The notes beneath the pieces were generated by a model that saw nothing but the letters and a program-made list of their open reading frames with translations, was not told where the DNA came from and ran no database searches. A stretch of DNA of 64,000 bases from Atrina japonica (Eukaryota; Mollusca; Bivalvia; Pterioida; Pinnidae): contig BROG01000527.1 of NCBI GenBank assembly GCA_030159075.1, positions 268,501 through 332,500 on the forward strand, given 5' to 3'. A program made the translations under genes and the position numbers. Below, piece by piece: positions 6,401 through 62,913 of this stretch (its first letter is position 1; each line of letters opens with the position of its first letter).

Positions 6401-9400
6401 GGGTATTGACAAGCTACACCTGTTATGACATCACAATACAATTTATATGACTTAGAGCTTCTATGTAATGAGATTGCATTGCATAAATACTACTTTCAGA
6501 CTGTGTTTGCATGCATAAACATGAATTTTAAGCATGGGAGAAAAGTAATCAAAGATGGGTGTGTTGAGTAAAAACAGAAATCTCATCCTTTGTGATAAGA
6601 ATCAGAAAGTCAATCCTCGGGAGACACAGGGATAGGACAACCTGATTCATACCACTCGAGTAGAAATTTCCTTATTGTACATGGGTTGTAATTGTTATGT
6701 TTTCCTGTCTTTTGAAACAATCACGGTTTTTGAATTTGCAGATTGGAAGTAGCTTAAAAGAACATTAAGTCCTGCAAAGATAACCCATAATATATATAAC
6801 GTACATATGAAGTTTTATTAAAACTTATTTACTGTTTGTTGAACTCACGAATTCATCAACATCGTGAATATAGCGCATATTAACACCGCATGTTATTTTT
6901 CACCTGTACAGTATCAACTTGACACACCCATGTAAGATACAATAAATTAAAAGGTACATTAAGATTTCATGTGTTTAATACAAATGAAACAAATGTTGTT
7001 GTTCTACAGGGAATATTACTGGGCTAACTATGCAACAGGTCTGGGAGCTTCGTTACATGAGCTTGGTCATACGTTTGATCTTGGCCACACTCCGTGTGGT
7101 ATAATGTCAAGAGGATTTGATGACATAAATCGGGTCTTCATAGCCCAAAGGTCAAAGGTTAAAGAGAAAAATAGACAACATACCAGAAGTTCAAGCAGCA
7201 GCAGAGATTGTCTTCCAAGAACCTCATCTAACAGCAGCGTTGACAGTATGACAGGAAGTATGTCCTCCGATACCAGCCAAAGTAAAAAATCCAAAGATGT
7301 CTGCTTTGGCAGTCCGATGAAAAAGGTGTGTTTTTCTTAATCTTATTGTGTTGTGACTCAGACTAACTCTAGATGTAAATGTACAGGTGTATATAATTCT
7401 TATTGTACAGATGTATGATAGGCTAACTCTAGATGTAAATGTACAGGTGTATATAATTCTTACTGTACAGGTGTATGATAGGTGTATTTGAATTTTGAGA
7501 TCTATGTTTACGTACTGGGTACTTTTCTTGTAATATATATTGTATGGATAGAAAAATATGTTGATTAAAATTTTTCAGTTATCTCGAATTCTGGATAGCT
7601 TCAGATTATAAGGAATCCTGTGAATTTTGAGATAATGAGATTTCATTGTATATCTAATTGTACCGTTAGAGCGATCGTTCAGGTTATGTTGAGGTTATGA
7701 CAAATTCAAATCACATAACCTCCTTTTCGTTCTTGATGATATTTGTCATTTCATTTTTTTTCATTTTTATATATATTTTTAGGACTTTGTTATTGTTAAC
7801 GTAACCTGTAGGTTACAATCATTCCTTTTAGTGTAACCTCTAAATGGATTACAATGATTTCTGTAAATTTGTGGCCTGCGTTATATACACATTAGATGCT
7901 CTGCTACCCTACATACCAGTGGTCATACAAGTTTCATTATTTTAGAAAAATCACCAAATTGATTGATTGTCTTCAAATTTAGTAGGTAGCAACTGATATT
8001 GTTAGGGAGACCAAATGTGAATTTCTTGACTCCTAGGTTAGGTATGTTCTGTAGGTAGGCTGGGCACACATATGATTGATAAAGTGGCTGTTTGTAGTTA
8101 ACATGTAATCCTTGCATTTGTACAGAATGCACTGTAATTCATGGTTTCTGATTTTGTTACAGTCAAACTCAACAGGCAGCACATGCTATATTGCACCAGT
8201 ACCAGTGAAGGTGAATCTAGAGTCCAGCTTCCAAGTAAAGGTGCCATCAACATTAACTTTTAGTGTGAAGAATTACGATGGAACGGAGCGTCATCAGACA
8301 GTTTTAGAGGGACCTGGGCACGAAACTGTCACAGATATGTTGCTAGGGACAGATGGAAGATTGCTAGCAAAGAAACAGACTTGCAGAGGTACAAAATGAT
8401 GGAATAGAATCATTATACAGTACAAGCATATTTATTTGTTTTAACTTTTTTTAATTTCTTTTTTACTTTTCATTGTTTGGGGGGGGGGGAGTAAACATCA
8501 TATTGGAAGTATAAATTAACCTGATATGCGGTCAGCCTTATTAAGCAGTCATCTCCTCTAAGTGGCCAGATTGAATTCCTCCTAAACGTTTTCCTTATAT
8601 TATACCCAAATAAGCAGTCACCATCTTAATGCGGTCAGCGGTCACCCTTTTCACATCCGACATAAAAAGTTGACCCAATTAATCGGCCATTCAAATTTCA
8701 ATGTGCCTCTCACTTTTGGTCCAAATATATATTTGTCCAATAATTATTGGGTAATTCTAGTATAAACATGGAAATTCTATATCTTTAAAATACCTTGACA
8801 AATATCAATATATTACAAAAATGATACATGCATGATAGGTGTATGAAATTTAACCCTAGCGTCCAAAAACGTCTGCTAAATTCGCTGTTCTCTACTCATG
8901 GTAATGTCCACAATCACCCAGTTGAAGTACAACACCTGATTACGAGAACATCAGAAACCGCCTCGTGTTTCTCTTTTACTTTCAATGGGGGTTTTCCCAG
9001 TTTTAGTTTATGACCGGAAATCATGATTAAAACAAAGAGTTTAGACGAGACTTTAATTTGTATTATCACGTGTACATATAATGGATGTTGTTAAAAATAA
9101 ACAAGTTACGGCGAATATAAAAGTGCTGGTATTTTGAAATCGGTGAATGAAAGTTGTTGAAAAATGGCTGTCTCTTATGCATCTAAGATTCCTCCAAGAT
9201 GTTTTAGATATTTTCAACTCTGTTCTGACTCTAAAAATGACTTTTTAGGATTTTATTTGAATGATGAGTCTGCATGTGAACAACCTGTAAACCCTATTTC
9301 TACAGAAACAGAATTCGATAGATATTGATTCTGAATCAGATGTTAGCGGTGACAATGATTTTACGAACAATTTCAATGCAGAAACCTCCTTCACAGAACT

Positions 9401-33851: not shown

Positions 33852-36800
33852 TCACTTCTCTGTTACAATATCTGGTTTAAAATCTGGCTTTACAGCTTGA
33901 GACAGTGACTCTGCATACATGTCAAGTCTTTGTGTCATCTGAAATAAACACAAACACGATGAAATCTCAAATGACATATATATATATCTGATATACATAT
34001 TTTGAATTGTTCTAGACCTATTGTATCAGATTTATTATAATTACTTTTATGTATAACTTATATCTTGGTTAATGTCTATAGTATTAAATCCCTGGAGAGG
34101 AATAACAAAAGCTAGATCAAGGGTATGTCAGAAGAATCTCCATCTAACACATATGATTCTTGAATGCCGAATTCAAGACAGAGGCCTAATTTGTCATTCA
34201 AAAATCTTACCTTGAGGTTTGACATTCTTATGTCATTCCCGCAAGTAAGGGGTTGATTTTTTATTTTCATTTTTATTTCAATTCATAAACAAAGAAAGGT
34301 GGTTAAAAAAATACTTTTAATGTGGCATGTCCTATTTGGGAAATTTTCTTGTATGGGATAATCCTGTGAATGATAAGAGACAAATATGTAGACAAAATCA
34401 CTCACTCTAAAACACCAGACATCCTTGATCTGTCTACATAAATTCAAATCCATCTCAGCTACAAGAAGACCATCTTGAGTTCTGGAGAGGCCCTGAAAAG
34501 AGTTAAGATTAGAAAATTACAAAAATTCATAAAATAATATTTCTAAAAATTATCAGTAGGCCGTGTATTTACTGTCAAAATTGCCTCTATATTCATGCAA
34601 TTCTCTATAAAAGAAAGTCTGCTGGATTATATAAATAGTGCCCTTGGTTGAGGGGAAAATTGAAGAGAATGTTCTCAAGAGGAGACAATCATTATTATAC
34701 CTCATAGATGACAAACAGTCAGGAGTTGGTTGAGAGCCGTCACATGCCAGGGATACAACACTTCAAGTCGCCCTCTAATGTCTCCCCCAGGTGGAGCCCA
34801 TTGTGAATTTTAAACAGAGTTGTCATTCATGATACAGAATTCAAATTATCCTACATATACCATTGCTCTACTTATCAAAGACACATAGTGTCATACTGTA
34901 ATGAATGCCTTGTATACAACACAAAACATTTGATTGTTCTATTATTGGCAGACATGTTGTATTACTGAACCTTTATAATTGATGTAAGATGGTCAGTTCT
35001 ATGTGTACAGCATAGATAAAATTACTGTATACTTGGTAATTTTTGCCCTTGGTTATATTTTGCCATTTTACAACAGAAAACATATTCGTGACCTTTAAAA
35101 TTTGCCCTCAATCACCGTAAATTCGTGGGCGGCATGTATGTTCTTGCTTCAATTATTTGGCTTGAAAATTTCGCTTTCATTTTAAATTTGCCTTCTTATG
35201 TAAGGACGAAAATGACGAAAATTAATCTTGAGCGTAAATTGCTTAGGTACACAGTATACTCACTGGAGTACGACTTCCGTCAGGAGCTGCTACGTAACTT
35301 GAGCCTGAAAAAATAAATATAAACATGAGGAACACAGGTTTATGTCAGGATAGTGTACAATTAATTACTACATTAAGTGTAGGTAGATACACAAAGTACA
35401 AACCTTGCTATACTGCCATCATTTGTTCAACCCAAATTTAGCATTACAAAGGGTTTGGCAGTAAGTTGAGGGAAACCTTAAAAGACATTATAGGGAAATT
35501 TGTTAAAAGTACCGATAGACTTTCAAAAATTGTGGTATAAAGCAAGGTGGCAAATGAAATGAAGTGCATTATAATGAGGTTTAACATGACCTAACATAAG
35601 TCAAACTCTTTTGCTAGTTAACATGAGTAAACTAACTTGTGCTTGCAGTTATGTCTGCAAGATATATGTGTTTCTTGAAGACCCAAAATCAGACACTTTT
35701 CACACACTGAAATTGTTGTCTAAATTACAATTTATTTCTTTATACATGTAAAGGCATAGAAACCAGAAATCACCATGGTTAACAAAGTTGAAATTGTGAA
35801 CGAAAAATCCTGATCCAAAGTGGATTACACAAAAACCTGAAAAACTGCTATTGAATATAAGCAAATGTATATATAACTCACCATAGAAATGGCCAAAATC
35901 TTTGTGTGCTGAAAGATATGAATATAAAAAAAAAAATCACAAATAAAATATGTATAAATATAGAAAGGGAAAATCAATCATATGAATACAAAAAGAAATT
36001 ACAAGTAAAATATGTATAAATATAGAAAGGGAAAATCAATCAGTTCATGTTTAATGTCTCTATTTAACATCCGTTAGAGTTTAACTTCAATAATCACAAC
36101 TGCTTGTGTTTAACTCATCAACCCCCGAAAAAATGGACTCTTCTGTAAATCAATGACATAGACCAGTCCAAATGTGTCTTAAGAGGTAAAAGCCTCCATA
36201 ACTACATTTATCCTATTTTGGTGGTAAATTTCTATAACCCAACTTTGGTCATAATTTTTTATTTTTCTGTTTGTTTGTTATTTTACATCCCACCAAGACA
36301 TTTTCACTTATATGGAAATGTCACCAGATTTAGGTTACTTACTTACTTCACTTAATGCCAATGGCAAGAAGGGAAGCACAACCTTAAAGTGGAGTACCAC
36401 AAATTTTGACCTGTGCTATGGACCAATGCCAATACAGTGAGGGTTCTTTTACATGACATGCCTTCAATCACACAGGACCTCAGTTTGGTCATTATAAACA
36501 TCTGTATTAAGCATGTATTTATGGAAAATGTTTGTTTTTTGTTTTTTGTGGTTTTTTTTGTTTATTTTTGGTTATGTCCCTTTCAAGAATATTTCACTCA
36601 TATGGACATCACCAAATGCCGGTAAAGGGCTTCAAATTTTGGCCTATGCTCGGCACTTACGGCCATTGAGCAGTGAGGGTTCTTTAACGTGCCGACACCT
36701 ACTGTGACACGGGACCTAGGTTTTTACTGTCTCATCTGAAGGACAGGAAACCAACCTGCCGCCGGCTGGACCCGAACACACGACCTCATGATCAAGAGTT

Positions 36801-39800
36801 GAGCACACTACCAACTGAGCCAAGCCAGTTCTAAATGTTTGGTGATACAGTCAACTCTTGTTATAATCGCCAGGTTGGGATCCAGTAAAATTGCTGTTAT
36901 ATCAAATATCCTGTTATATCAAATTTCCAGGCTTGACGCCAAAATAAGAATGTGAACATAATTTGTTGTTATAATACCCCCATTAAATGTTAAACATCTG
37001 CTGAATATGGTTGCATGTATGAAATAGAATGACTACAACAAATATAATTGTTTTTATTGTTCTTTTTATTCTATCAATGTAACAAATCAGGGCAACAATT
37101 TTTCATTTTTGATACTTTGCCATTATAACAAGCTAATTCTAGAAGTAAAATGCATGTTTGTTGCCAAAAATCACTGCCGGTTCCGGAAAGCAAATATGCC
37201 GTTATATCAAACAAATTAACATGGATGTAAATTCTTTCCATGAAATTTCTACTGTTAACCAAAAATGCTGTTATATCAAGTGCCGTTATAACAAGAGTTG
37301 ACTGTATATGTAAGTGTAAGTGTAAGTGGTAAATGCAAGTACTTTACCTGGTTTTCCATTTGCAGATGTGAATTCATTGGGAAATTCTTCCTGCAAGGAA
37401 AATAAAAACAGTGATATATAATAAAATTTGAGTATCAATGTGATTCATTCTTATCATGTGTTTATGTTTATTATAATCATTATGATTTTCTTTTTTTTGT
37501 CAAAAGTGAATCTGATGACATCAACTTTCCTTGATTTTGAGTCAGAGTTCCTACTATGTTTATATTTGAATAACTTACAGTTCCCACTCTGTTTATGTTT
37601 GGACAACTAACAGTTCCTACTCTGTTTATGTAGGACTACTCACAGTTCCCACTCTGTTTATGTTTGGACAACTTCCAGTTCCTACCCTGTTTATGTTTGG
37701 AAACTTCACAGTTCACACTCTGTTTATGTTTGGACAACTTACAATTCCAACTCTGTTTATGTTTGAACAACTTACAGTTCCTAATCTGTTTATGTTTGGA
37801 CAACTTACAATTCCTCTTCTGTTTATGTTTGGACAACTTACAGTTCCCACTCTGTTTATGTTTGGACAACTTACAGTTCCCACACTGTTTATGTTTGGAC
37901 AACTTACAATTCCCACTGTTTATGTTTGGACAACTTACAGTCCCCACTGTTTAAGATTGGACAACTAACAATTCCTACTCTGTTTATGTTTGGACAACTT
38001 ACAATTCCCACTGTTTATGTTTGGACAACTTACAGTTCCCACTGTTTATGATTGGACAACTTACAGTTCCTACTCTGTTTATGTTTGGACAGCTTACAAA
38101 TCCTACTCTGTTTATGTTTGAACAGCTTACAAATCCTACTCTGTTTATGTTTGAACAGCTTACAATTCCCACTGTTTATGATTGGACAACTTACAGTTCC
38201 CACTGTTTATGATTGGACACTTTACAGTTCCTACTCTGTTTATGTTTGAACAGCTTACAATTCCCACTGTTTATGTTTGGACAACTTACAGTTCCCACTG
38301 CTTATGATTGGACAACTTACAGTTCCCACTGTTTATGATTGGACACTTTACAGTTCCTACTCTGTTTATGTTTGGACAACTTACAGTTCCTACTCTGTTT
38401 ATGTTTGGACAACTTACAGTTCCTACTCTGTTTATGTTTGGACAACTTACAGTTCCTACTCTGTTTATATTTGGACAACTTACAATTCCAACTCTGTTTA
38501 TGTTTGGACAACTTACAATTCCAACTCTGTTTATGTTTGGACAACTTACAATTCCCACTTTTTATGTTTGGACGACTTACAGTTCCCACTGTTCATGTTT
38601 GGACAGCTTACAATTCCTACTCTCTTTATGTTTGGACAACTTACAATTCCAACTCTGTTTATGTTTGGACAACTTACAATTCCAACTCTGTTTATGTTTG
38701 GACAACTTACAGTTCCTAATCTGTTTATGTTTGGACAACTTACAGTTCCTACTCTGTTTATGTTTGGACAACTTACAGTTCCTACTCTGTTTATGTTTGG
38801 ACAACTTACAGTTCCTGCTCTGTTTATGTTTGGACAACTTACAGTTCCTACTCTGTTTATGTTTGGACAACTTACAGTTTCTACTCTGTTTCTGTTTGGA
38901 CAACTTACAGTTTCTACTCTGTTTCTGTTTGGACAACTTACAGTTCCTGCTCTGTTTATGTTTGGACAACTTACAGTTCCTACTCTGTTTATGTTTGGAT
39001 ACTTACAGTTCCTACTCTGTTTATGGCACAAGTAAAGTAACTGTTAGCAATGGCTGCACATCTAGCTTCAATTGACCACATTGGTTCACTGAAATTAAAA
39101 ACACATATGCACAGTAAGCAACTGTAAAATTGACAAAACAAATCTATGGTACTTCAAGAACTCATTAAGTTATCACTACAAATTTAAAACTTTTTATGTG
39201 CCCTCAACCAGGATTTTATAGATGCAGGGTTTTCCCACAAATTTTTAATTATGGGATACAATAGACCCCATCTAAATTGAAAATGGGGTTCATTGGGAAA
39301 ATTTGAAGGTTATTGATTCTTTCCATATGTTTTCAAAAAATTACTTACTTATTTAAAAAAACTTTTTTCAAATGTTAATTTTAAGTGTAAAAATTAATCA
39401 TGATTTCAGACTTACAACCTTATCTCAGGATGTTGTTTTCAGACTAAAATCTTTTTTCAGGATGCTGTTTTCAGACTAAAATCTTTTTTCAGGCTGCTGT
39501 TTTCAGACTAAAATCTTTTTTCAAGATGCTGTTTTCAGACTAAAATCTTTTTTCAGGCTGCTGTTTTCAGACTAAAATCTTTTTTCAGGATGCTGTTTTC
39601 AGACATACAATCTGATCTAAGGATGCAGTTTTTAGACTTTCAATCTTATCTTAGGACACTGTTACCAGACTACAATCTTATCTTAGGATCCTAATTTCTG
39701 ACTTTAAATCTCATCTCAGGACACTGCTTTCAAACTTACAATCTTATCTCAGTATGCTGATTTCAGATTTTCATCCATACCTCAGGACGCTGTTTTCAGA

Positions 39801-42800
39801 CTTACAACCTTATCTCAAAATGCTGTTTTCAGACTAAAATCTTATCTCAGGACACTTTTTTCAGACTTTCAACCTTATATCAGGATGCTGATTTCAGACT
39901 TTCAATCTTATCTCAGGACACTTTTTTTAGACTGAAATCTTATCCCTGGACATTGATTTTAAATTAACAAAGGAAACTTAATATGGCCAAGTTTGAGATT
40001 CTTGTTTTCTTCTAAGAAAACATACATTAGTTTAGGACAAGATTTCTTTTTTTGTGATGTAAAGCTGTAATGATAAACTGTCACTGGCTGATGTTGTAAT
40101 AAAAGAGGTCAAATACTGGAAATAAAAACTCTTAACAAGCATTAAATCAGGAATCACATGAAAACAAGTCATAATCAACTACAACTACAAGACCTTTAAT
40201 ATTTTCTAAGTGCTTTCCGAAGCTTTTGTATTACCTCAATGCCCCTACAGTTGCGGACGGGTTGAAAACAATTTCTGCACCATTAATACCATACATCATC
40301 CAATTTTGGGGATGGTGGCGGCCATAGCAAATGTTAATAGCAATTTTACCTGCAAAGAATTCAAGTTTCTGAGTTTTGCTTGGTTCTGCCATGCATATAG
40401 AGTAAAAATTCTGTTTAACACAGAAAGCATGCATGCAGTTTTACTTCCTGATTTAATCTAAAAAGGTCTGGGCATCCGTAACTTAAAGGGGAGAAAAGCT
40501 GGGGTTGAACTTAGCAAACTTATCAACGAACAGTAATTACTAATACATTTACTGTCAAACTTGTCTATAAAAGTCATTAAAGGGAACAGGTAAAAATGGC
40601 CATTATAGACAGGTGGCCTTTATAAAGAGGTTTATTTATCAAAAACAAAATAATGAAGTATACAATTGAATGGCCTTTACAGGCAGGTGTCTTTTATACA
40701 GAAGTAGCCTTTAATAATGCAAGTTTGACTGTAATCTGTCTAACAAATAAAATGTGATAAAAAAAAACGTAGATAAAATATTATTACATTTTGTATTTTC
40801 ATTATAAGACCCATATCCTTAAGGTAACCTTGATTGAGAGACCACCTATCATATGTAACCATATTGTAATTTCCCTTGAATGGTCTCTTAATACAGCTTA
40901 GACTGTTTTTATTGTATGTAAAGATCTCATTAGATCTCTAAATACTGAAAAAGAGGACTGTAAGTAAATGTCAGGTCACAACTGTTAAATAAAAAAAAGA
41001 ACTAACAACAACAGCAAAATCAAAAAAATAACAGAAAAATTAACAAACTGCCACAATGAAAATAATAATAAACCACTAAAGTACTCACCAAACTGGGTTT
41101 GGAATACTTTATGACCTGTGTTGCCTTCCAAATAATATGTAGACTACAACATAACAAGTTTAATATTAAAAGAGGATATATCTTTTTATCACTGACATTA
41201 ATATGAACTCTTGATTTCTTCAATAACATCCCTATGTTTATCAATTTGAAAAAAAATAACCTGTAATCGCATTTGAACTCGCCCATTTCAAAGAATGGTA
41301 GATTCCACTGGCAGAATTCAGGAGTTTTTATTTAGCATCCAAAATTTACAATACATAAATATGCAAAATTAACCTGTTCATTCCTGATTTATGACAATAG
41401 ACTATACCTTTTATTGATTTAGACGAGTCTAAATGTAACTAAAGGGGTGAATAAGTTACGAGTTTTAGTGGATCATTCGTTTGTCTTTCTATAAACAAAA
41501 ACTATTCCCAAATGTAACAAACTGTTGTCATGACAACACACATCACTCTGTGAAACGCAAGACAACATTGTGTGCATTTATCTCCCTCCAATACCTTGTA
41601 TTTTCAATGACATTTACAGTGTTATAAAACATGGCCAGAGTATCCAGCTGACATATTCTGTGCTTAGTTTAAACTTTAGTTATTTTACAACGATTGACAA
41701 ACAAGTTACGGTATGTCAACTTATATAAATGTCTCTCACTGGCTCTGATGTTGACATGCCGGGTTCTTGCTGTGGGAGGAAACCGGAGCATCCAGAGAAA
41801 ACCCACATGTCTGACTTGGTGACCACAACACTATCTCACATACTCCCCTGTCAAATCCAAGAATCGAACCCAGGTCAAATTGGTGAGAGGTGAGTACGCT
41901 AACCACTGCACTACTTGGACACCCTTAATGTAATTCTGTGCTAGACTCTCCCGAGATGAACCTCTGTTAAAAATTGTAAATCATATAAAAATACTGTATG
42001 TCTAGTTCCAACCTACATACAATCCTGAGAGTCAAAATGTTTTTACTTGGTTCTTCATAAATATTCAATAAACGTACCTCATTAAAATCTCCAACCCTTG
42101 GAATATGGTTTTTCCTGGATTTTCCAAGGACTTTTCCGGTGTTGGAAATGACCACTGAAATTAGAATATGCATGATATCAAAATATATTAAAATAAAAAT
42201 AATGGTATGTATCAAAAATGACAAAAAAATTATGAAAAGTGGTACTTACATGCATGTAAGACTTTCCAACATTAAAAACTTAAACAACACTTGAAATCAA
42301 AAGTAACTTATGAGTCATTACCCATATGTCTTTCCAAGTCAGTGATATTGTTTGCCTTTAATTATCTCTAGAGTTCAGCTGTTTCTGTCAAAATATGGCC
42401 TAAAATTATCTCAGATGAGATGTACAATTTTCCAAGTTGGTGATAGTCTTGGTAGTAAAAGTACGTGAAAATTCAAAATGTTATTTTTTTATATTATGAA
42501 AGTGCTTTTGAGATTAGGACTTAAGAGACTCAACCATGTATTCAGTTTCCCTTCAGAATATAACACTTCAAATTCAGTTTCAGTACAATTAATTCATTAT
42601 TCAAAATTTCTCAATTTTCAAAAAAAAACAACAAAAAAAACATATATTCCCAAACAAAATTTGCGGAGGTAATTTTGAAAAAAAGTCAACAAAATCACTG
42701 CATGTGTTAATACTTCTAACGTAATATATGATTGTGGTGTTATAACATAATGATGTTACTATTTTATAAAGGTTACTATTGATGTGTAAACTAGTGTATC

Positions 42801-45800
42801 TATATTTCCTCACGATGAAAGGTTTTTTTAAGAATTAATTAAAGGAAAAAAAGGGATAATCAGGACCCTCCATGTTACAGTGGAACCTACCATGAGAGAC
42901 CACTCTCATGAGAGAGCACCTGTTTTTTGAGACCACATTCTGATAACCACTCAGTTAAACAAATATTTAAATAAATTCTCTTTTAAGACAGACCACATTT
43001 GAGTGGCAGATGGAATGATCTCTCAAGAGATGTCCATTGCACTTCCTATATATAGGTACTAGAAATGTATACAATTTAACAGATGGAGACAAAGTTGGTC
43101 TGGAATTCCAAACAAAAAGATGTAATTATCAAAATCTGGAATTCCAAACAGAAAGATGTAATTATCAAAATCTACCTTTCAATATTACGTCAGTTATACT
43201 TGTTGTATTTCAAATATCACCATAATACATCAGGAATTCTAAGTACAAAGATCTACCCAATACAGTATGGCTTATGTATTGTTACTTTTCAATATAACGT
43301 GATCTTTACCCAGTGTCCACTAAATTATCACCATGAAACACCAGAAATGTTGTGTAAAAAAAAATATCTACCTAACTCATCAACCCCCAAAAAACAAATG
43401 ACTCTTCTGTAAATCAATTACTTAGACCAGTCCAAATGTGTCTTTAGGTGTTAATGAGTTAATACCTTCTGGCTGATGTAATGTAACTTTCCAATAATTT
43501 GTAATCCATACCTGCAGTGTTTGCTAAGATTTCCCCATGATCGTCATCTCGCTCCAGAATTGGTGACACTATCACCATATTGTACTTTTTAGCCAACTGA
43601 AAACAAAAAAGAAAAAGAAAAATTAGATCTTCATAGTCAAAGAAACAACACAAATATTACAGTCACTGCCAGCTGTATACTGATCACACTATCATAAAGA
43701 GAAATCTCCATGACCCCACTGTTAGAGTATTGTACAAGGGGAAATAACTTGTTCAGACCACAAAATAACACAAAAGCAAATCACGTTACTACCTTTTCGT
43801 TCTCGATGATAATTATCACTTCATTTTTTTTTTCATTTTTATATATATTTAAGGGTGTTCATAACTGTTATTGTAACCTGTAGGTTGCGGTCATTTCTTT
43901 TAGTGTAACCTCTAAATGGGTTACGATGATTTGTTATTTTGTGGCATGCTTGTTGCATGTTAATATATGCTATATTCACTGTGTTAATACATACATGTAT
44001 GTGAATTTAAAGGGGCATCAGCTGTGTTTACCAAAAAAAAAAAAACGCCAAAAGAATTCAATTCTTTTCTTCTTTTACTATTTGTACTTGATGTACAATT
44101 ACAAACAAGAGCTATACTCTGGCAAAACAAATGTTATAGTCCTATATACTTTGTGAAAATAAGGTCAGATCCAGTGTAGTATTCACATAAAAATAGTAAG
44201 GTTGAGAAAATCAACCTCGATTGAAAAAGTGCCAAATCTGGGTTTCTCAAGCAGTTTTCACAAAGTATATAAAAATATAAAAAAATGCAGCTAAGAAACA
44301 GTGAATATTTTAAATGAAATCATATAAATATAATACATAAGTTAACAGATTGTCTTTGCAGGACCTGATGTTAGTATTATCTTCTCTAACCCAGTGACTC
44401 AGCTCACCGTTCTTTGCTTTATTTAAAACTAAGCATGTAAAGTTGATTTTACCTCTTGCATAAGTTTGGTTGTTGGTCCATCCTCTGCTGACTCAGCAAA
44501 TTCACACCAAGGGTATTTCTCTCTGGTACAAAATGCAAAAGGCATTGCTGAAAATTATAAGGAAATTAATATACATCTTGAATGACACAATTTTGTTATA
44601 TAAGTTCTAAACCTTATCTGATGATTGTTTTTTCACATTACTTGATAAATACATTTACAATACAAAACTGTTTAATGCTCATATTACCCATGGATTTTTG
44701 AAACTCCTTTGGAAATGAGGCTCAGGGCTTTTGAATTCAATTGGGAATTTTAGCATCATTCTATTGAAATTGTGAAATTTAAAGATACACAAAACTTTTT
44801 GAAAATTCAAGAATGTCTTCAAGTCATTTGAGTTTGATTGGGGATGTTGACTGCGAATTTGGGGAAAATGCATTTTATTTTATTTGCATCTGGGAATAGG
44901 GCCTTATTTCTGCTCCTATGATATGGTGAATGAGTATTCGATTTGCAAGCAGGTGGTCCTGAGCCTGATTCTCTGTCCTTTAAAACACTTAAATGATAAT
45001 GACTGACTCTATGACAATGGTATCATGGTATTGCAAATGAAAGCCATGTGTCTTCTGAATGAGACTTTCAGTTGGGGGGGGGTTGCTCCATGGCCAAGTG
45101 GTTAGAGCATCACGCTTTAAAACATGAAGTCTCTCACTTCTGGTCAGCACAGGTCTGAGTCCTGCTAGAACCTAAGCTGATTCTTTTGAGAAAGTCTGCC
45201 AGTTTACTTGCGGAAGGCCAGTGGTTTATTCCCCGTTAACAAAGTTCTCTCCTCCACCATTAAAAACTAGCCACCACCATATAACTGAAAAATTGTTGAG
45301 AGTGGCATAAAACACTATTCAAAATCAAAATCAAATACATCTGAGAGTCGTTGCCACGGTATATGACTCTTCAACTTTATACCAGGTAAAATTGTCATGT
45401 ACATTTTGGTAGGACACATAACAATGGTAAAACATAACAGACTGCTATCACTATGTCTGTAGATTCCAACGGAATATAAGTATTCTATAAAATGTAAAAA
45501 CACACAATCCTAGCTGTAGTGTTTGCCCCTGGTTATTTTTGCCCTTTAACAACAGAAAGCGCATTGACCTAGTCTTAAATTTGCCCTAAATAACCTGTCT
45601 CGTGATTAACCAGGCCACAAAATAACAGAAATCACCATAACCCATTTACAGATTATGCTAAAAGGAATGACCATAACCTGCAGATTACAATAGCAATAAT
45701 GAAGATTTAAAAATGAAATTCATCGAGAATGAAAAGGAGGTTACATGATTTGTATTTGTCATCACCTCCACATAACCTTAACGATTGATCCTGTGTTATT

Positions 45801-48742
45801 TTGTGGTCTGTTAACATGTATGCCCATGCTTCTATTATTTTGCTTGAAAATTAGGCTTATTTTTCCAAATTTGCCTTTCCACCTAAAGATGAAAATGGGG
45901 AAATTGAATGGGAGCGAAAATTTCTAAGTATACTGTACCTGTATAAGCTTACTTTTGTTGGATACTGAACAACTGATAAAGTTATTATGTACATAAATAC
46001 TGGATACTTACTCCATGCTTCCTGTAAACACATGATATTCACTCCACATTTTGCAGCCACATCAATTATTTCTGTAATTCTCTGATGAAGAGACTCCAAC
46101 TAGTAAAATGAAAAAAAATATGTAACAAAGTGTAGATTCATGTACATGTAACACTGTTAGATCATCAACCCCTGAAAAACAATGGATTCTTCTGTAAATC
46201 AATGACAGACCAGTCCAAATGTGTCTTTTGGAGTAAATGGGTTATACAAAATGTATGTACATGTATGTGCAACAGGGATTTTTCTAGGCCTATTTTGGGT
46301 CCAGTTACAGGACCCTTCCCAATGCAAAAATGGCTTATTTTCCCCAAAATATGCAAAAATTCCCAATTTGGAATTTCAAAATAAATAAATAGAGTATTTT
46401 CAAACAAATGTTTCAAATTAAGTACAATGTAGTTCTTTTCTAGTAAAAATGTGTATTTTCCCAATTTTTCCAGACCCTAGAAATTTGGAGGCAGGAAAAT
46501 CCTTGTGCAATATTTCAAAATGATATAAATATTTACAAGTACATATACCGCATAGGAAAATATTTTGACCCATACCACAAGTATCTAGAAGTTAATAAAC
46601 TAACAGGCTAAGCTCTAGTATATGAGAATTACACCTATAAAAAAAGCACAGATAAAATGTGTAACTATTAATTCACAAGTTTATTTGACTTATGATACAC
46701 AATGTATCTAGTACTAACTGAAGAGATAAGTCTTCTCCTATTCTGATGGTGTACATGTATCTAATTTAAAAAGCCCAGGGCCTACATGCATAAAACTTAT
46801 GGTGAAAAAATGTTCTCATTAAATCTGAGAATATTTTTAAGTTCGGTGCAGCAAGTCGAATTAGGAATATTCATGTACATGTACTTCAGAAAGTTTTGAA
46901 GATTTATGGATAGGCCTTTGCCTGTGTAATACTCCTCACAAAAAATAAGCTTTAGTATTTATTCTGAGACACGCAGACAAATAAAATACCTGCTTTGAGA
47001 TGGGTTCTGTTGTTGGTATGACAATTTTATTCTGAATCACGCCAACTCTTACAATCCTGGCTGATCTCTGGCTCTCTTCACCTGCGGAAAAGCTGTAACC
47101 TTTCAACTCAAATTTCTTACAATCAGCTTCCTTTTTCAACTCTGATGAGAAATCCAATGCCCTGAAATATAGACATTTGTTTTAGCTATGTTTTACATCC
47201 CTCAAAAAATTGTTTGAACAATTACTAGTACATTGTACATGTACAATGTAATTATTCCACTGGTCTTCATCGGTCATCTATAAACCATTTGACTCTTTTA
47301 ACTCTCTGAAAATTATGTATATACTTCAGCAATCATGTTCAAATTTTGTAAGAAGATTCATTAGGATATGGAGAAGATAAATTGTGAATTAAGTTATTCT
47401 GGTACCCCTTGATACCTTTGTCAGTTTGAGCTGGACCAACAGTGAAAAAAAAAATTATTTTCTTTACCTCTGCACATCAAGGATAAAAACTGAAGAGGAT
47501 AAAGCTCTCTACAAAAATTGATAAATTTATCACCCTGGGAGAAAGGGTTCAAGGTCTGGGGAGGGGCCAGTTATCCACATATTATACCTGGTAGTGACAT
47601 GTACATGTAAATATACATTATACATGCTAAGTTAATTTTAGAAAATCTTCTTTACATCTATGAATTGTAAGGAAAATCTTAATAGTAAATTTTTAGAAAA
47701 AGCATGAAGTCTTCTGCCTAAATTGTAAAAGTTATTACCCTGGGAGCAGGAATTCAAGGTCTTGTGTGGGGTAAATACAGTACTCTTAGATTTTGGCTAT
47801 ACGTTTAGATATATTATTATTTGGCCTGGTCTGATACCACTTTCTCTTTAGATAAACTATTTTAAATTGTAGCTCAACTGATGAAGTCTAAATGACAGAA
47901 ACGATCGTCTTGAGCATTATAACTTTGGTATCATGTTTATAATATTTAGTTTCTGTGACGATTAACTTCATTTTAGAAAATCTTTGGTGGTCCATGGCCA
48001 GCATGGGTTATGGCAATGTGCTCAAGTCTAGGACAATAGTAGTCTCCTCCATGTCTATGTGCCATTTTGTCTCAGGTGACTATCAAGGCCCATTGGGCCT
48101 CTTGTTTAAATAATACAATGAATAATTTTTTTTTTTCATTAAATAGAAACATTTATGATATTAAAGAAATAAATTGTATACTGAATACAATAATTGAATA
48201 AAATTTTATGAAATTTTGTGAAAACACCCTTAAAATGTAGATGGTTTTAAATCCTGGGGCTGGACAGTGGATGTAGGCCTAAGATGAAATAATTTGATTG
48301 GCCCTAATTCCCTAATAGGCCCCAACAATCAGTGGGTGAATCACAACTGACAATGACATGACACAAGAAAATGAAGGCATTTCCTATTTACTTTTCATTG
48401 GAAAAATTTGCTAACAATATTTTAACTGATTAGGCTTAGAAAACCCAGCACAAATGTGCAAAACGTGGACGCATAATGATATAAATCTCATGGCAGATTC
48501 AGTTAGGCAGATGCCAAGGTGCGTGTTACTGATACAGAGGCTGAGAGTGAGAGATAACTCCGGAAAAGATGGACAGTGATAGCGGTGTGAACACATTAAC
48601 TGATCTAGTTACTGCTATCTAATTTGAACGTTAATACTCACTTTAGTTCCTTTCCATACAGAATTCGTTTTACTTCAGCTAGCTCAGAAGCAGGCAAATG
48701 CTTCTCCAATGAGCTTTCAACGCTTTCGATCTCTCCTGACAT
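33852..48742 (-). CDS. UPB1: Beta-ureidopropionase (UPB1), 14 exons, complete
   Basis: This enzyme performs the last step of reductive pyrimidine degradation, hydrolysing N-carbamoyl-beta-alanine (or the beta-aminoisobutyrate analogue) to the beta-amino acid, CO2 and ammonia in the cytosol. It is a carbon-nitrogen hydrolase (nitrilase fold). Exons, 5' to 3' on the minus strand: 48742-48642, 47161-46990, 46099-46012, 44547-44453, 43596-43512, 42154-42078, 41143-41089, 40349-40235, 39088-39007, 37390-37348, 35908-35882, 35304-35264, 34492-34406, 33938-33852. The sum is 1155 nt, 384 residues, equal to the human enzyme. The start ATG is the first in its frame and has A at -3. The catalytic residues are present: E118 (LQEAW), K195 ([13 protein letters not shown]) and C232 ([10 protein letters not shown]), one less than the human numbering 119/196/233. 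E206 is also kept. Exon 11 is only 27 bp. Intron 9 holds the exon-derived splice-donor array at 37544-39025. Confidence 0.97.
35025..35260. repeat. Dispersed repeat, TATTTTTGCCC family, in UPB1 intron 12
   Basis: CTTGGTAATTTTTGCCCTTG, GGCTTGAAAATTTCGCTTTC and TTGCTTAGGTACACAGTA match the order at 22935-23172. It ends a few bases before the donor of UPB1 exon 12 on the opposite strand. Confidence 0.55.
35397..35585. mobile_element. MITE, second copy of the 21350 family
   Basis: TACAAACCTTGCTATACTGCC, CCCAAATTTAGCATTACAAA, CTTTCAAAAATTGTGGTATA and CATTATAATGAGGTTTAACA follow the 21350-21539 copy in order and spacing. It lies in UPB1 intron 11. Confidence 0.6.
35920..36040. repeat. Two-copy tandem duplication of about 63 bp
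   Basis: AAAATATGTATAAATATAG then AAAGGGAAAATCAATCA occurs twice in a row in UPB1 intron 10. Confidence 0.7.
36290..36836 (-). mobile_element. tRNA-derived SINE pair, minus strand
   Basis: Read on the minus strand from 36836: CTTGGCTCAGTTGGTAGTGT (A box), TCATGAGGTCGTG, GTTCGGGTCC (B box), then GGCACGTTAAAGAACCCTC and a tail near 36560. A second, 5'-truncated copy follows at about 36290-36490 (CCAATGCCAATACAGTGAGG). It lies in UPB1 intron 10, in the sense orientation of that gene. Confidence 0.6.
36846..37306. mobile_element. 461-bp MITE with perfect 20-bp TIR
   Basis: TACAGTCAACTCTTGTTATA at 36846-36865 is exactly inverted at 37287-37306. Internal motifs CTGTTATATCAAA (left) and GCTGTTATATCAAG with GCCGTTATA (right) recur near both ends. 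TA borders suggest Tc1/mariner-type insertion. It lies in UPB1 intron 10, about 40 bp from exon 10. Confidence 0.8.
37544..39025 (-). repeat. 33-bp tandem array made from the UPB1 exon 9 end plus its splice donor
   Basis: On the UPB1 sense (minus) strand the unit is CATAAACAGAGTAGGAACT (19 bases) followed by GTAAGTTGTCCAAA (14 bases). The 19-base part is identical to the last 19 coding bases of exon 9 (39007-39025), and GTAAGT matches the real donor at 39001-39006. About 45 units of 31 or 33 bp fill the intron from the exon boundary to about 37544. By eye I count 32 intronic copies with exact GTAAGT; most others have GTAAGC, GTAAAG or GTTAGT. Units with exactly INRVGT coding text cluster next to the exon, and units are more diverged far from it. 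The 33-bp period keeps several frames open on both strands, which are not genes. Confidence 0.93.
39001..39006 (-). promoter_or_regulatory. Authentic 5' splice site of UPB1 exon 9
   Basis: GTAAGT follows GTAGGAACT on the minus strand. The next exon (37390-37348, EEFPNEFTS) resumes in phase 0, so this is the site needed for the full-length protein. The unit beginning here is one base shorter (GTAAGTATCC versus GTAAGTTGTCC), so skipping to any later copy reads into a TAA within a few codons. Confidence 0.85.
39415..39960. repeat. Minisatellite, about 32-37 bp unit, in UPB1 intron 8
   Basis: Units read GGATGCTGTTTTCAGACTAA, then AATCTTTTTTCA, with older units carrying CTTACAATCTTATCTCAGG. About fifteen copies are visible, the central five nearly identical. 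It is unrelated to the exon-derived array on the other side of exon 9. Confidence 0.8.
40550..40733. mobile_element. MITE, TACAGTCAAACTTG family
   Basis: TACTGTCAAACTTGTCTATA at the left and ATGCAAGTTTGACTGTA at the right are inverted; the interior has ATAGACAGGTGGCCTTTATA twice in related form. It lies in UPB1 intron 7. Confidence 0.7.
41722..41925 (-). mobile_element. tRNA-derived SINE, minus strand
   Basis: From 41922 on the minus strand: GTAGTGCAGTGGTTAGCGTA (A box), CTGGGTTCGATTCTTGG (B box), GACAGGGGAGTATGTGAGAT, ACATGTGGGTTTTCTCTGG, GAGAGACATTTATATAAG. It is the best-preserved member of its family here, with further copies at 4722 and 10826. It lies in UPB1 intron 6. Confidence 0.7.
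42876..43040. mobile_element. MITE, TACAGTGGAACC family
   Basis: TACAGTGGAACCTACCATGA at the left and CTCAAGAGATGTCCATTGCA at the right, with AGACCACATTCTGATAACCA inside, match 4515-4684. It lies in UPB1 intron 5. Confidence 0.55.
43094..43175. repeat. Two-copy tandem duplication of about 36 bp
   Basis: CTGGAATTCCAAACAAAAAG then ATGTAATTATCAAAAT occurs twice in a row in UPB1 intron 5. Confidence 0.75.
43374..43460. mobile_element. Mini-MITE of about 87 bp, AACTCATCAACCCC family
   Basis: AACTCATCAACCCCC at the left is mirrored by GGTGTTAATGAGTT at the right. The interior TCTTCTGTAAATCAATTACT and GACCAGTCCAAATGTGTCTT recurs at 36115-36190 and 46160-46245, and inverted near 41395-41455. Confidence 0.6.
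43754..43948 (+). mobile_element. CAG-ended MITE, forward copy, in UPB1 intron 4
   Basis: CAGACCACAAAATAACA at the left and TGTTATTTTGTGGCATG at the right are inverted. The interior has GTAACCTGTAGGTTGCGGTC and TAGTGTAACCTCTAAATGGG. CTTGTT is found on both flanks or nearly so, which may be a target duplication. The second internal palindrome of other copies is deleted. Confidence 0.65.
44930..45074 (+). mobile_element. Truncated SINE of the 26128 type
   Basis: GAGTATTCGATTTGCAAGCA, GGTCCTGAGCCTGATTCT and CATGTGTCTTCTGAATGAGA follow the order of 26128-26450. It is cut off by the next SINE at 45075. Confidence 0.45.
45075..45334 (+). mobile_element. tRNA-derived SINE, full length, plus strand
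   Basis: The head CTCCATGGCCAAGTGGTTAG (A box) and GGTCTGAGTCC (B box) precede AGAACCTAAGCTGATTCTTT, GGAAGGCCAGTGGTTTATTC and CTGAAAAATTGTTGAGAGTG, ending in an AAAATCAAAATCAAA tail. It inserted into an older SINE in UPB1 intron 3. Confidence 0.7.
45515..45945. repeat. TATTTTTGCCC-family repeat interrupted by a younger MITE
   Basis: The left half 45515-45610 (GTTATTTTTGCCCTTTAACA) and right half 45811-45945 (TGCTTGAAAATTAGGC, TTTCTAAGTATACTGTA) together match 22935-23172. The break is filled by 45611-45810. Confidence 0.65.
45611..45810 (-). mobile_element. CAG-ended MITE with TTAAC target duplication
   Basis: It begins CAGGCCACAAAATAACAG and ends CTGTGTTATTTTGTGGTCTG, a TIR of about 17 bp. 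TTAAC stands at 45606-45610 and again at 45811-45815. The surrounding host repeat is continuous without it, which defines the insertion site. CAG termini hint at a hAT-like group, but a 5-bp duplication is not the usual 8 bp, so the superfamily is open. Confidence 0.75.
46160..46245. mobile_element. Mini-MITE of the AACTCATCAACCCC family
   Basis: ATCATCAACCCCTGAAAAAC, TCTTCTGTAAATCAATGACA and AGTCCAAATGTGTCTTTTGG match 43374-43460. It lies in UPB1 intron 2. Confidence 0.5.
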
Positions 48743-61000: not shown

Positions 61001-62835
61001 CCGGGAAGAGACCACTGGCCTTCTACAAGTAAGCTGGCAAATTTTATCACAAAACCAGTTTAGGTTCCAGTGTGAGGTGAAACCTGATTTTACAATGGTT
61101 TTACTTTAGAGAAATCTCAATGCCATGATTTAAGGTAAATCTGAAGGTGCAAGAACCCTGTTGTATACTTTAGGTATGTAAACAAAATCTATCCTTTCCA
61201 TAGTAATGATTGTATGTTTGTTTTTATTTTCAGTTTTACTTAAGAACGAACACATGATGGTAAGTGGTATTAAATATTATCCAAATTTTTATTTATTTGT
61301 CACCTATCAGTGTACGGTGGATGTGGGGGTGGGGGTTGGTTTTGCCTGTGTCAGAATTTCTATTTGTCAGGTAAGAGTTTTGTAATTGCTCAACAGTAAG
61401 TAATGATTCACAAGTAGGGGCAGGGGGCTTGTATTGATTCATCGTTGCTCTCAGAATGCTTGTTTATAATGGTTTCATGGGTAGGGGATATATATTGATT
61501 CATTCATACTCTTAAAATGCTTGTCTATAATGGTCTCACAAGTAGGGACATGTATTGATTCATCAACACTCTCAAAATGCTTGTCTATAATGGTCACACA
61601 GGAGTCATGTATTGATTCATTATGGTCACACAGGTAGGGGACATGTATTGATTTACCAACACTCTCAAAATGCTTGTCTGTAATGGTTTCATGGGTAGGG
61701 GTCATGTATTGATTCATCAATACTATCAGAATGCTTGTTTATAATGGTCTCGCAGGTAGGGGACATATATTGATTCATCCATACTCTTAAAATGCTTGTC
61801 TATTGATTCATCAATACTATCAGAATGCTTGTTTATAATGGTCTCACAAGTAGGGACATGTATTAATTCATCAATTGATAACCTCAAAATGCTTGTTTAT
61901 AATGGTTTCACAGGTAGGGGACATGTATTGATTCACCAACACTCTCAAAATGCTTGTCTGTAATGGTTTCACAGGTAGGGGACATGTATTGATTCACCAA
62001 CACTCTCAAAATGCATGTCTGTAATGGTTTCACAGGTAGGGGTCATGTATTGATTCATCAATACTGTCATGTATTGATTCATCAATGCTTTCAGAATGCT
62101 TGTTTATAATGGTCTCACAGGTAGGGGACAAATTGATTCATAAAAATTCTTCGAATGCTTACTATATTTGAGTCATGTCTGTTATTGGAAAAAGTTTGAA
62201 CTCTTAAAGGGTTAGATTGATATGCATTGGGTCAAGATATAAATAGAATCTAAGGTAGATGATTTTTAGATCATATTTTTATCTTATCTCATTTTTTACA
62301 AAAGAACTTCCTTTACAGGATTTCATAAGATTCTATTTATTGTAATCATCTAAACTCTTGCAGAAAATTGCCAAAGTTGAGACTTTTTACTTATTTATAT
62401 TATTCTAAGTCGATGTTGTTATTTTCAACTTACCAGGTAATTAAGAAAAACATAATTTTACACAAAAAAATGAATTTTTTACCTACATGTACTTGAAACT
62501 ACCTAACTATCAATGAAAGAGCACCTCAATCTAAGAATCAAATTTGATTTCATTGACATTAACCAAATGAAAATGAGTCAACCCTATAATTGTATTGTTG
62601 AAATAATACAGTATTTTAAGCTCACCTGGCCCAAAGGTAATTCCCAGTACTCTTTACCCAGAAGGCCTTTTGTACGTAACATGATAAATGTAATAAATAA
62701 ACATACTTTTCTCTTTTCATTTGTTGACAGTGTAAACATACTTTGGCCATAAAGTTGGCGGATGCTATGGATCTGTGTAAAGTTCAGGAAGTTTCAGATG
62801 AAGAAATCAGCAATATGCTGTCCAGTATAGAGTGA
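49027..62835 (+). CDS. ZSWIM7: ZSWIM7 / SWS1 SWIM-domain protein, 7 exons, complete
   Basis: SWS1 works with a RAD51 paralogue-like partner (SWSAP1) in the Shu complex, promoting RAD51-dependent homologous recombination in the nucleus. Exons are 49027-49096, 54725-54796, 56576-56597, 59531-59633, 60804-60882, 61234-61259 and 62731-62835. Phases close at every GT-AG junction, giving 477 nt and 158 residues. The SWIM zinc motif is complete: C107-x-C109 (YCSCPA), then C125-x-H127 (CKH). Conserved text includes SALDLIDNRHVTLI and SPSGRKVYQVLGSSG. The start at 49027 has A at -3 and G at +4. A second in-frame ATG at 49093 (MEEDLVAV) aligns with the start of the 140-residue human protein, so the first 22 residues may be optional. 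Two exons are tiny (22 and 26 bp). Introns 1, 2, 3 and 6 each contain a different tandem array. Confidence 0.95.
49610..49786. mobile_element. Foldback/TIR element, about 56-bp arms, in ZSWIM7 intron 1
   Basis: ATAGACCCTTTCACAATAAC then TGTGGTCCTGTAACTTTGAG at the left is mirrored by CTCAAAGTTACAGGACCGCA then GCTATCGTGAAAGGGTCTAT at the right, with about 60 bp between the arms. No coding sequence. Confidence 0.75.
50981..51345. mobile_element. 365-bp TIR element with TACAT target duplication, ZSWIM7 intron 1
   Basis: CAGGGATAGAAATTA at the left is inverted as TAATTTCTATCCCTG at the right. TACAT precedes the left end and follows the right end, a 5-bp duplication. The interior has GGGGCCCAGTAGCCCA and TAGGAGCCCAGATAGCTCC. 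The CAG ends and 5-bp duplication parallel the element at 45611-45810. Confidence 0.7.
51399..54025. repeat. 39-bp tandem array, about 67 units, ZSWIM7 intron 1
   Basis: The unit is GTGATGTCACTTGAACAGTA then CTCAGCAGCCTACAGGAGA. TGATGTCA differs by one base from the palindromic CRE (TGACGTCA), and units with GTGGTGTCA or GTGATATCA also occur. Thirty-nine is a multiple of three, so long frames of 200-340 codons are open on both strands; the repetitive peptides (EQYSAAYRRVMSL on plus) have no start, domain or splice context. 52940-53250 is unusually rich in indels. Confidence 0.9.
54188..54292. mobile_element. MITE, TACAGTCAAACTTG family, short copy
   Basis: TACAGACAAACTTGCATTAA at the left and ATAGACAAGTTGGACTGTA at the right are inverted; the interior TTATAAAGGCCAATAAATA matches 60517-60752. 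It lies in ZSWIM7 intron 1. Confidence 0.6.
55129..56400. repeat. 19/20-bp tandem array, about 65 units, ZSWIM7 intron 2
   Basis: The main unit is GGATAGTCTAACTCACTAT. Variants with TCTTACTCACTAT, GTGTAACTCACTAT and a 20-base CATGATGTCTTACTCACTAT form higher-order blocks. The outermost units at both edges carry CGCGATC (near 55149 and 56392), which interior units lack. It is not CRISPR: there are no unique spacers. Confidence 0.9.
57918..59165. repeat. 50-bp tandem array, about 25 units, ZSWIM7 intron 3
   Basis: The unit is AGAAATCAGGTCAATTGAAA, TACTGTTAGGTAGGGTTAGA, AAAACTAAAA. Interior units are nearly identical; the first and last two are diverged, as in an array grown from the middle. 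GTAGGGTTAG includes a telomere-like TAGGGTTAG in each unit, which I take as coincidence. Confidence 0.92.
59745..59937 (-). mobile_element. tRNA-derived SINE, minus strand, ZSWIM7 intron 4
   Basis: From 59937 on the minus strand: TGGCCGAGTGGTTAGAGCAT (A box), GAACTGTGAAATCTCTCACT, then GTTCCAGCC... The plus-strand text GAGACCACCGGCCTTCTGCA is the inverted body. It is the same family as 12973-13207. Confidence 0.65.
60517..60752. mobile_element. MITE, TACAGTCAAACTTG family, longest copy
   Basis: TACATTCAAACTTGCATTAA at the left and TATACAAGTTTGACTCTA at the right are inverted. The interior has GGCCACCTCTATATAAAGGG and ACCTGTCTATAATGGCTACT repeated in altered form. It ends about 50 bp before the exon 5 acceptor of ZSWIM7. 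Confidence 0.6.
60935..61105 (-). mobile_element. SINE fragment, minus strand, ZSWIM7 intron 5
   Basis: GTTATATGGTGGCAGCCAGT, GAGACCACTGGCCTTCTACA and GTTTAGGTTCCAGTGTGAGG match the inverted body and part of the head of the 59745 copy. Confidence 0.55.
61395..62150. repeat. About 61-bp tandem array, ZSWIM7 intron 6
   Basis: Units read TCATCAACACTCTCAAAATG, CTTGTCTATAATGGTCTCAC, AGGTAGGGGACATGTATTGAT. About eleven copies occur, some shortened by deletion. Most carry CACAG/GTAGGG or CACAA/GTAGGG on the gene's sense strand, a weak donor-like string. Confidence 0.8.
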
Positions 62836-62913
62836 GAGAACTGATTCTTACAGTGAGAAAACTGATTCTTACCATGAGAGAATTGATCCCCAGAGTGAGA
62901 GAATTGGTTCCTA
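62831..62913 (+). repeat. 21-bp repeat, four copies, starting at the ZSWIM7 stop codon
   Basis: AGTGAGAGAACTGATTCTTAC is followed by three diverged copies (62852, 62874 and 62894). The TGA stop at 62833-62835 lies in the first copy, so the 3' UTR opens with copies of the stop-codon context. Confidence 0.7.

What the first reader, a model, noticed from the sequence alone, without database searches (positions are those of the whole stretch)
37544..39025. UPB1 intron carries about 45 tandem copies of its own exon end plus 5' splice site
Seen: on the UPB1 sense strand the repeat unit is the last 19 coding bases of exon 9 (CATAAACAGAGTAGGAACT) joined to 14 intronic bases starting GTAAGT, and the array begins exactly at that exon. 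I count 32 intronic copies with exact GTAAGT plus near variants. Known: this exon end encodes INRVGT, conserved in UPB1 (human has INRVGTE), so the exon is ancestral and the array derived from it. Inference: the intron offers dozens of decoy donors in native exon context. The first unit is 32 bp, not 33, so using any later donor adds a frameshift and an early TAA, giving a nonsense isoform. Either the spliceosome picks the first of many equal donors, or a measurable share of transcripts is lost. I know of no described case of a minisatellite seeded by an exon-donor junction at this scale.
Basis: partly seen in the sequence, partly recalled or inferred. Interest (0 to 1): 0.9.

Follow-up and report, generated by a model that had tools for sequence, protein, structure and literature searches.

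The report
Splice-site minisatellite in a UPB1 intron
In a mollusc-like genome, the end of one exon of a common enzyme gene plus its splice signal has been copied about 45 times into the next intron, a kind of repeat already described as a mirage, and further cases turn up in other genes of the same genome.

Summary
UPB1 exon 9 (39088-39007, minus strand) ends in a 32-bp junction unit followed by 45 tandem intronic copies; 32 of the 45 keep an exact GTAAGT. Any later donor adds VSIQT-stop. The claim that no such case is described is wrong: repeats spanning exon-intron boundaries are "mirages" in amphioxus (PMC3087553, PMC3902484), and human CBS and ABCA7 VNTRs have the same layout. New here: the genome holds more. 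Of 17 fetched loci with periodic GGTAAGT, 3 start at a homology-supported coding exon (neutral ceramidase with two arrays, Ig domain, WD40), one more weakly; an IP3-receptor exon has an acceptor version. Contigs C1-C5 list 19 GGTAAGT arrays against 2 for the reversed word, but GGTGAGT (9) and the acceptor word TTTCAGG (8) show no genome-wide excess over their reversals. Prevalence is therefore only suggested. Best mechanism: tandem duplication across the junction, with splicing staying at the first, exon-adjacent donor and leaks giving nonsense transcripts. UPB1's first donor pairs better with U1 than the other copies, but 10 other exon-end arrays compared do not show this, so position is the likelier rule. 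No RNA data were available.

The parts
39007..39088 (-). UPB1 exon 9 (82 nt), ends ...CATAAACAGAGTAGGAACT
   Evidence: exon model; protein homology
38994..39025 (-). founder unit: last 19 exonic nt + first 13 intronic nt (32 bp), holds the real donor ACT|GTAAGTATCC
37540..38993 (-). 45 intronic copies (44 full, 1 partial) of the exon-end + donor unit; 32 with exact GTAAGT
37391..39006 (-). intron 9 (1616 nt), GT...TTCCTTGCAG
37348..37390 (-). UPB1 exon 10 ([14 protein letters not shown]...)
33852..48742 (-). UPB1 coding region, 14 exons, 384 aa plus stop
39404..39961 (-). separate 32-33 bp minisatellite in intron 8; starts about 270 nt after the exon 8 donor, so not junction-seeded

Best explanation
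This is a mirage-type minisatellite. A tandem duplication across the exon 9 / intron 9 junction of UPB1 copied 19 exonic and about 14 intronic bases, and later rounds of unequal exchange or slippage expanded it to 45 intronic copies. The copies are decoy 5' splice sites. The spliceosome is expected to use the first donor because it bounds an ordinary 82-nt exon (exon definition); use of any later donor adds 32 nt or more and a stop after five codons, so leaked transcripts should go to nonsense-mediated decay. The array is thus tolerated, not functional. The tandem structure, exon origin and reading-frame consequences are shown; the birth mechanism, first-donor choice and decay are inferred, partly from the precedents.
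For: Array anatomy. Intact 14-exon gene with human and fly homologues at E below 1e-180; E follows directly in 119 of 119 homologues holding INR[V/I]G[T/S/M], of 120 listed. Stop after VSIQT. Decoy hexamers differ from the consensus at 16 of 264 positions (6.1%) against 82 of 836 (9.8%) for the exon-derived part and 17 of 352 (4.8%) for the rest of the unit, so no sign that decoys are purged or kept. [quoted passage not shown] PMC3902484 passage). In ABCA7 canonical splicing coexists with one-unit retention, frameshift and decay (PMC5954066 passages). Further exon-end arrays in this genome: neutral ceramidase (two), Ig domain, WD40, weakly a MOR2-PAG1_C-like exon.
Against: No RNA data, so first-donor use is not shown. 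In ABCA7 the alternative transcripts together exceeded the canonical one in 90% of BA10 cases, so such arrays need not be inert. Assembly of the array was not checked with reads. No related species' intron was available to date the array.
Confidence: 0.75

Rival explanations
1. The first donor wins by strength, not position: A and T at +7 and +8 extend U1 pairing to eight intronic bases, while decoys have T and G there.
For: Model duplex energy with the U1 5' end -7.3 for the first donor, -5.4 for the GTAAGT decoys. GTAAGTAT occurs once in exon end plus array, at the real donor. The U1 5' end, typed from recall, was then read as ATACTTACCT in 7 of 8 U1-like loci of this genome.
Against: One GTGAGT decoy scores -7.1. 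Of 11 exon-end arrays compared, the first donor is stronger than the next one only in UPB1, equal in 8, and weaker in 2 (L015, L055). Of these 11, five exons (L015, L045, L052, L053, L055) have no homology support and L039 only weak support. So strength is unlikely to be the general rule.
Confidence: 0.15
2. The array is a regulated poison switch: donor choice among the copies tunes UPB1 output through decay.
For: Every later donor gives an early stop. In ABCA7 exon 19 skipping rises with array length.
Against: Donor hexamers are not kept better than the rest of the unit. In ABCA7 retention of one unit was not affected by array length. An in-frame stop in the first added unit is seen in 9 of 11 exon-end arrays examined, not above the roughly 62% expected for 13 codons at this base composition (p 0.15).
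Confidence: 0.07
3. 5' splice sites are hot spots for minisatellite birth in this genome, beyond random placement of a very active tandem-repeat process.
For: GGTAAGT x3 matches 3955 against 1563 for the reversed word; 19 against 2 arrays on contigs C1-C5, although single GGTAAGT words are fewer, 83,975 against 119,350. Acceptor word TTTCAGG x3: 1440 against 1714.
Against: GGTGAGT x3, also a donor word, shows no excess, 1935 against 2120. Arrays with 3 or more copies and period 15-100 cover 17% of the window, so random overlap with donors is expected. The number of real GGTAAGT donors is unknown. Acceptor arrays may simply be selected against. Strict homology support, 3 of 17 against 0 of 16 control loci, is not significant (p 0.12).
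Confidence: 0.3
4. Assembly artefact.
For: None found; reads were not available.
Against: Units differ by many point changes and 31/33-bp subtypes, and exon-end arrays with unrelated units occur on other contigs.
Confidence: 0.03

Closest known systems
Mirage minisatellites of amphioxus (Adh3, globins BflGb6 and BflGb9, troponin C; similar imperfect repeats in PGBD5; PMC3087553 and PMC3902484, passages read)
   Different: here 45 copies of 31-33 bp (globin BflGb6: 3 and 6 units of 150-160 bp; Adh3 units 10-72 bp); mollusc-like genome; several unrelated genes found in one scan; splicing untested
Human CBS 31-bp VNTR, c.1444_1467+7(16_21) (PMC2630376, passages read; Lievers 2001 not held)
   Same: by its name the unit is exon end (24 nt) plus intron start (7 nt), so each copy should hold a donor; similar unit size
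   Different: 16-21 copies and known population polymorphism; here 45 copies, polymorphism untested
Human ABCA7 intron 18 VNTR (PMC5954066, passages read)
   Same: array begins at the exon's own donor; using the next donor adds one unit, shifts the frame and leads to decay
   Different: as described, the unit starts at the GT, so copies are not said to carry exon sequence; 12-427 copies
Internal tandem repeats at exon-intron boundaries of human duplicated genes (PMC2812944, passages read)
   Same: minisatellites of about 30 bp at exon-intron boundaries that affect splicing
   Different: about 4 copies on average, in segmental duplications, found as paralogue differences

Membership tests
[quoted passage not shown]
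   19 exonic + 13-14 intronic bases in the common unit
mirage minisatellite | authentic boundary retained at the array edge | tested here: met
   exon 9 intact, frame open through 14 exons
mirage minisatellite | does not disturb regular splicing | not testable with these tools
   no RNA data
mirage minisatellite | length instability between haplotypes or cells | not testable with these tools
   the array is found once in the assembly; no reads
exon-donor VNTR (CBS, ABCA7 type) | units carry a 5' splice site sequence | tested here: met
   32 of 45 intronic copies with exact GTAAGT; use itself not shown
exon-donor VNTR (CBS, ABCA7 type) | copy-number polymorphism | not testable with these tools
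   one assembly only
transposed or dispersed repeat | same unit found at many loci | tested here: not met
   only 3 other matches, partial and 66-68% identical, in arrays with different units

The most novel reading that the evidence does not exclude
Exon-end minisatellites are a widespread class in this genome, perhaps hundreds of loci with the GGTAAGT donor alone, more common at donors than at acceptors, so that splicing in this animal must pick the exon-adjacent donor among dozens of near-equal ones by position, giving a natural series of duplicated-donor experiments.
Probability: 0.4. Interest if true: 0.75.

Novelty: new member of a known kind. Interest (0 to 1): 0.5.

Why it matters
Arrays of near-identical donors in native exon context are a natural test of how the spliceosome chooses among equal 5' splice sites (first, strongest, or nearest the acceptor). 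If many genes of one animal carry them, RNA-seq from that one species would answer the question across many copy numbers and spacings, and would show whether such arrays feed new introns, as proposed for amphioxus.

Tried and rejected
U1 strength as the general rule: judged unlikely after the other arrays were compared. Dispersed-repeat origin: rejected. Selection on decoys: no sign. Species name by COX1: no match in the assembly. Protein search with the translated array: 2 hits, P0121 with an unrelated 11-residue repeat and P0122 left open.

Controls that did not separate: length of open frame upstream of the array start, 16 donor-word boundaries (L056 dropped by the script because its first array starts near the locus edge) against 29 control boundaries, p 0.22. 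Acceptor score with open frame: median 4.3 in 17 donor-word against -1.4 in 30 control boundaries, p 0.08; against 1320 random positions p 0.016. Scores of 8 or more: 5 of 17, 2 of 30 and 46 of 1320 (p 0.049 and 0.0003); the cut-off of 8 was set by me without prior calibration. Strict homology 3 of 17 against 0 of 16, p 0.12. The 10 of 17 used in two Fisher tests counted L056 twice (9 loci) and included open-frame-only loci, so those two p values are not relied on. Control check: 23 of the 24 open frames listed were sent to Pfam (one of them cut to 97 residues); three matches, E 0.047 to 0.095, all below the families' cut-offs. Acceptor set: 7 peptides from 6 of 15 loci were sent to Pfam; besides L071 one sub-threshold match (E 0.075).

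A more donor-specific triple pattern (CAGGTAAGT) did not complete. Literature: nine searches. Lievers 2001, the paper tried as Canestro 2002, and Zhuo 2007 are not held.

Full report
What is there. On the minus strand the window carries UPB1 (beta-ureidopropionase) in 14 coding exons, 384 aa, matching human and fly enzymes of the PDB at E below 1e-180. Among 120 listed homologues the named ones with the highest identity are bivalves (Sinanodonta 82%, Dreissena 81%, Mytilus trossulus and edulis 80%), followed by Ylistrum and the annelid Owenia at 79%; the best hit, 85%, has no name. So the genome (832 Mb, 2347 contigs) is probably a bivalve; no species name was obtained. Exon 9 (39088-39007) ends CATAAACAGAGTAGGAACT and its donor reads GTAAGTATCC. 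From base 39025 a minisatellite runs to about 37540: one junction unit of 32 bp and 45 intronic copies. 32 intronic copies keep GTAAGT exactly; the GT itself is kept in 43 of 44 full intronic copies. Exon 10 follows at 37390.

Direction. The exonic 19 bases code for INRVGT (with one base of the codon before), present in 112 of 120 listed homologues, and E follows at once in all 119 that hold INR[V/I]G[T/S/M]. So the exon is the source and the array the derivative. (A first, narrower pattern parsed only 71 of the 120.)

Consequence of later donors. Reading on past the real donor gives VSIQT and a stop inside the first added unit, so this holds for every later donor. With a first unit of 33 instead of 32 bp the first dozen or so units would stay open (they read [11 protein letters not shown] in the 165-aa frame); this is inference from the sequence. 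Loss of such transcripts by nonsense-mediated decay is inferred.

First donor against decoys. 23 decoys share all nine bases from -3 to +6 with the first donor, but the first donor has A,T at +7,+8 while T and G stand there in 42 of 44 full intronic units each, giving modelled U1 pairing of -7.3 against -5.4 for GTAAGT decoys; one GTGAGT decoy reaches -7.1. The U1 5' end used was recalled and then read in 7 of 8 U1-like loci. This looked like a neat answer, but of 11 exon-end arrays compared the first donor beats the next one only in UPB1; it is equal in eight and weaker in two. Five of the 11 exons lack homology support and one has only weak support. Position is therefore the likelier general rule.

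No selection seen on decoys. Differences from the unit consensus are 16 of 264 in the donor hexamer, 82 of 836 in the exon-derived part and 17 of 352 in the rest.

Is it alone in this genome? The three other matches to the array are weak (66-68%) and lie in arrays with other units. A pattern of three GGTAAGT words 16-45 bases apart gives 3955 matches, against 1563 for the reversed word, although single GGTAAGT words are rarer than the reversed word (83,975 against 119,350). Matches overlap within arrays, so they are not array counts. On contigs C1 to C5 (about 25 Mb; the GGTAAGT listing stops at C5 position 3,747,771) I count by hand 19 arrays for GGTAAGT, 2 for the reversed word, 9 for GGTGAGT and 8 for the acceptor word TTTCAGG. 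Genome-wide GGTGAGT (1935 against 2120) and TTTCAGG (1440 against 1714) show no excess over their reversed words, so the excess is tied to one donor word, not shown for donors in general. I fetched 17 of the 19 GGTAAGT loci, leaving out a simple-repeat one and an irregular one; one of the 17 (L054) turned out to have no TRF array.

Reading the starts of these 17: three loci begin at coding exon ends with homology support. L056 has two exon ends of neutral ceramidase (Pfam 5e-15 and 7e-15, PDB 2e-25); one of its two arrays carries TGTAAGT and was found by luck. L057 is an Ig domain (I-set 4e-7). L047 is WD40 (best Pfam 1e-6 but below that family's cut-off, best PDB 9e-11). L039 has a weak match (MOR2-PAG1_C, 0.0023, below cut-off). 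L015, L045, L052, L053 and L055 show an open frame with an acceptor-like site upstream but no homology (L053 one match at 0.03 below cut-off). In the other eight I saw no exon at the start. In 15 acceptor-word arrays one, L071, ends at an exon of the IP3 receptor (PDB 2e-26), with six exact copies of the acceptor word upstream of the real one in the stretch fetched. In 16 control arrays no exon was recognised; 23 of the 24 open frames listed were tested by Pfam without a match above cut-off. Statistics are mixed: strict homology 3 of 17 against 0 of 16, p 0.12; open-frame length not different, p 0.22; acceptor score with open frame p 0.08 against control boundaries and p 0.016 against random positions. 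So recurrence is shown, prevalence is only suggested. Scaling 19 arrays in about 25 Mb to the genome gives roughly 600 GGTAAGT arrays, of which an unknown share, perhaps a fifth (3 of 17) to a half (9 of 17), sits at exon ends.

What is known. Tandem repeats spanning exon-intron boundaries are called mirages in amphioxus Adh3, globins and troponin C, with similar imperfect repeats in PGBD5; they are reported not to disturb splicing and are proposed as a source of new introns (PMC3087553, PMC3902484; passages). The human CBS VNTR is named c.1444_1467+7(16_21), that is 24 exonic and 7 intronic bases in 16-21 copies (PMC2630376 passages). The ABCA7 VNTR starts at the exon 18 donor, has about 12 to 427 copies, and use of the next donor was observed (PMC5954066 passages). 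The UPB1 array belongs to this kind. My nine literature searches showed no mollusc case in their listings; those listings were capped and judged by title, abstract start and, for a few, passages, so this is no proof of absence.

Verdict. A real feature and a new member of a known kind. What lifts it is recurrence in one genome and the chance to use it as a natural test of donor choice.

Noticed in passing
L056 (G000:C5:3082200-3084200): Two exon ends of a neutral ceramidase gene each carry their own exon-end plus donor array (44-bp and 50-bp units).
   Followed up: yes
L071:1-396 (G000:C10:1525800-1527000): Acceptor version: 47-bp unit of intron end plus exon start repeated upstream of an IP3-receptor exon, giving a run of decoy acceptors.
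   Followed up: partly
L055:1079-1189: An array of CAG|GTAAGT units whose first copy reads CAG|GCAAGT after an open frame, so the true donor may be a GC donor or a later copy; the exon has no homology support.
   Followed up: no
window 15446-64000: The window is very rich in minisatellites: 16 merged arrays (period 15-100, 3 or more copies) cover 17% of it.
   Followed up: partly
window 62831-62910: A 21-bp repeat follows an open frame ending ...CKHTLAIKLADAMDLCKVQEVSDEEISNMLSSIE; coding repeat or small exon-end array, not decided.
   Followed up: no
window 6963-7337 (+): Exon of a putative metallopeptidase gene (Pfam Metallopep PF12044, 2.8e-20).
   Followed up: no
P0122: A 116-aa predicted protein from a 661-bp contig with an 11-residue repeat containing NINRVGT; possibly a readthrough of a similar array in another animal, or chance.
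   Followed up: no
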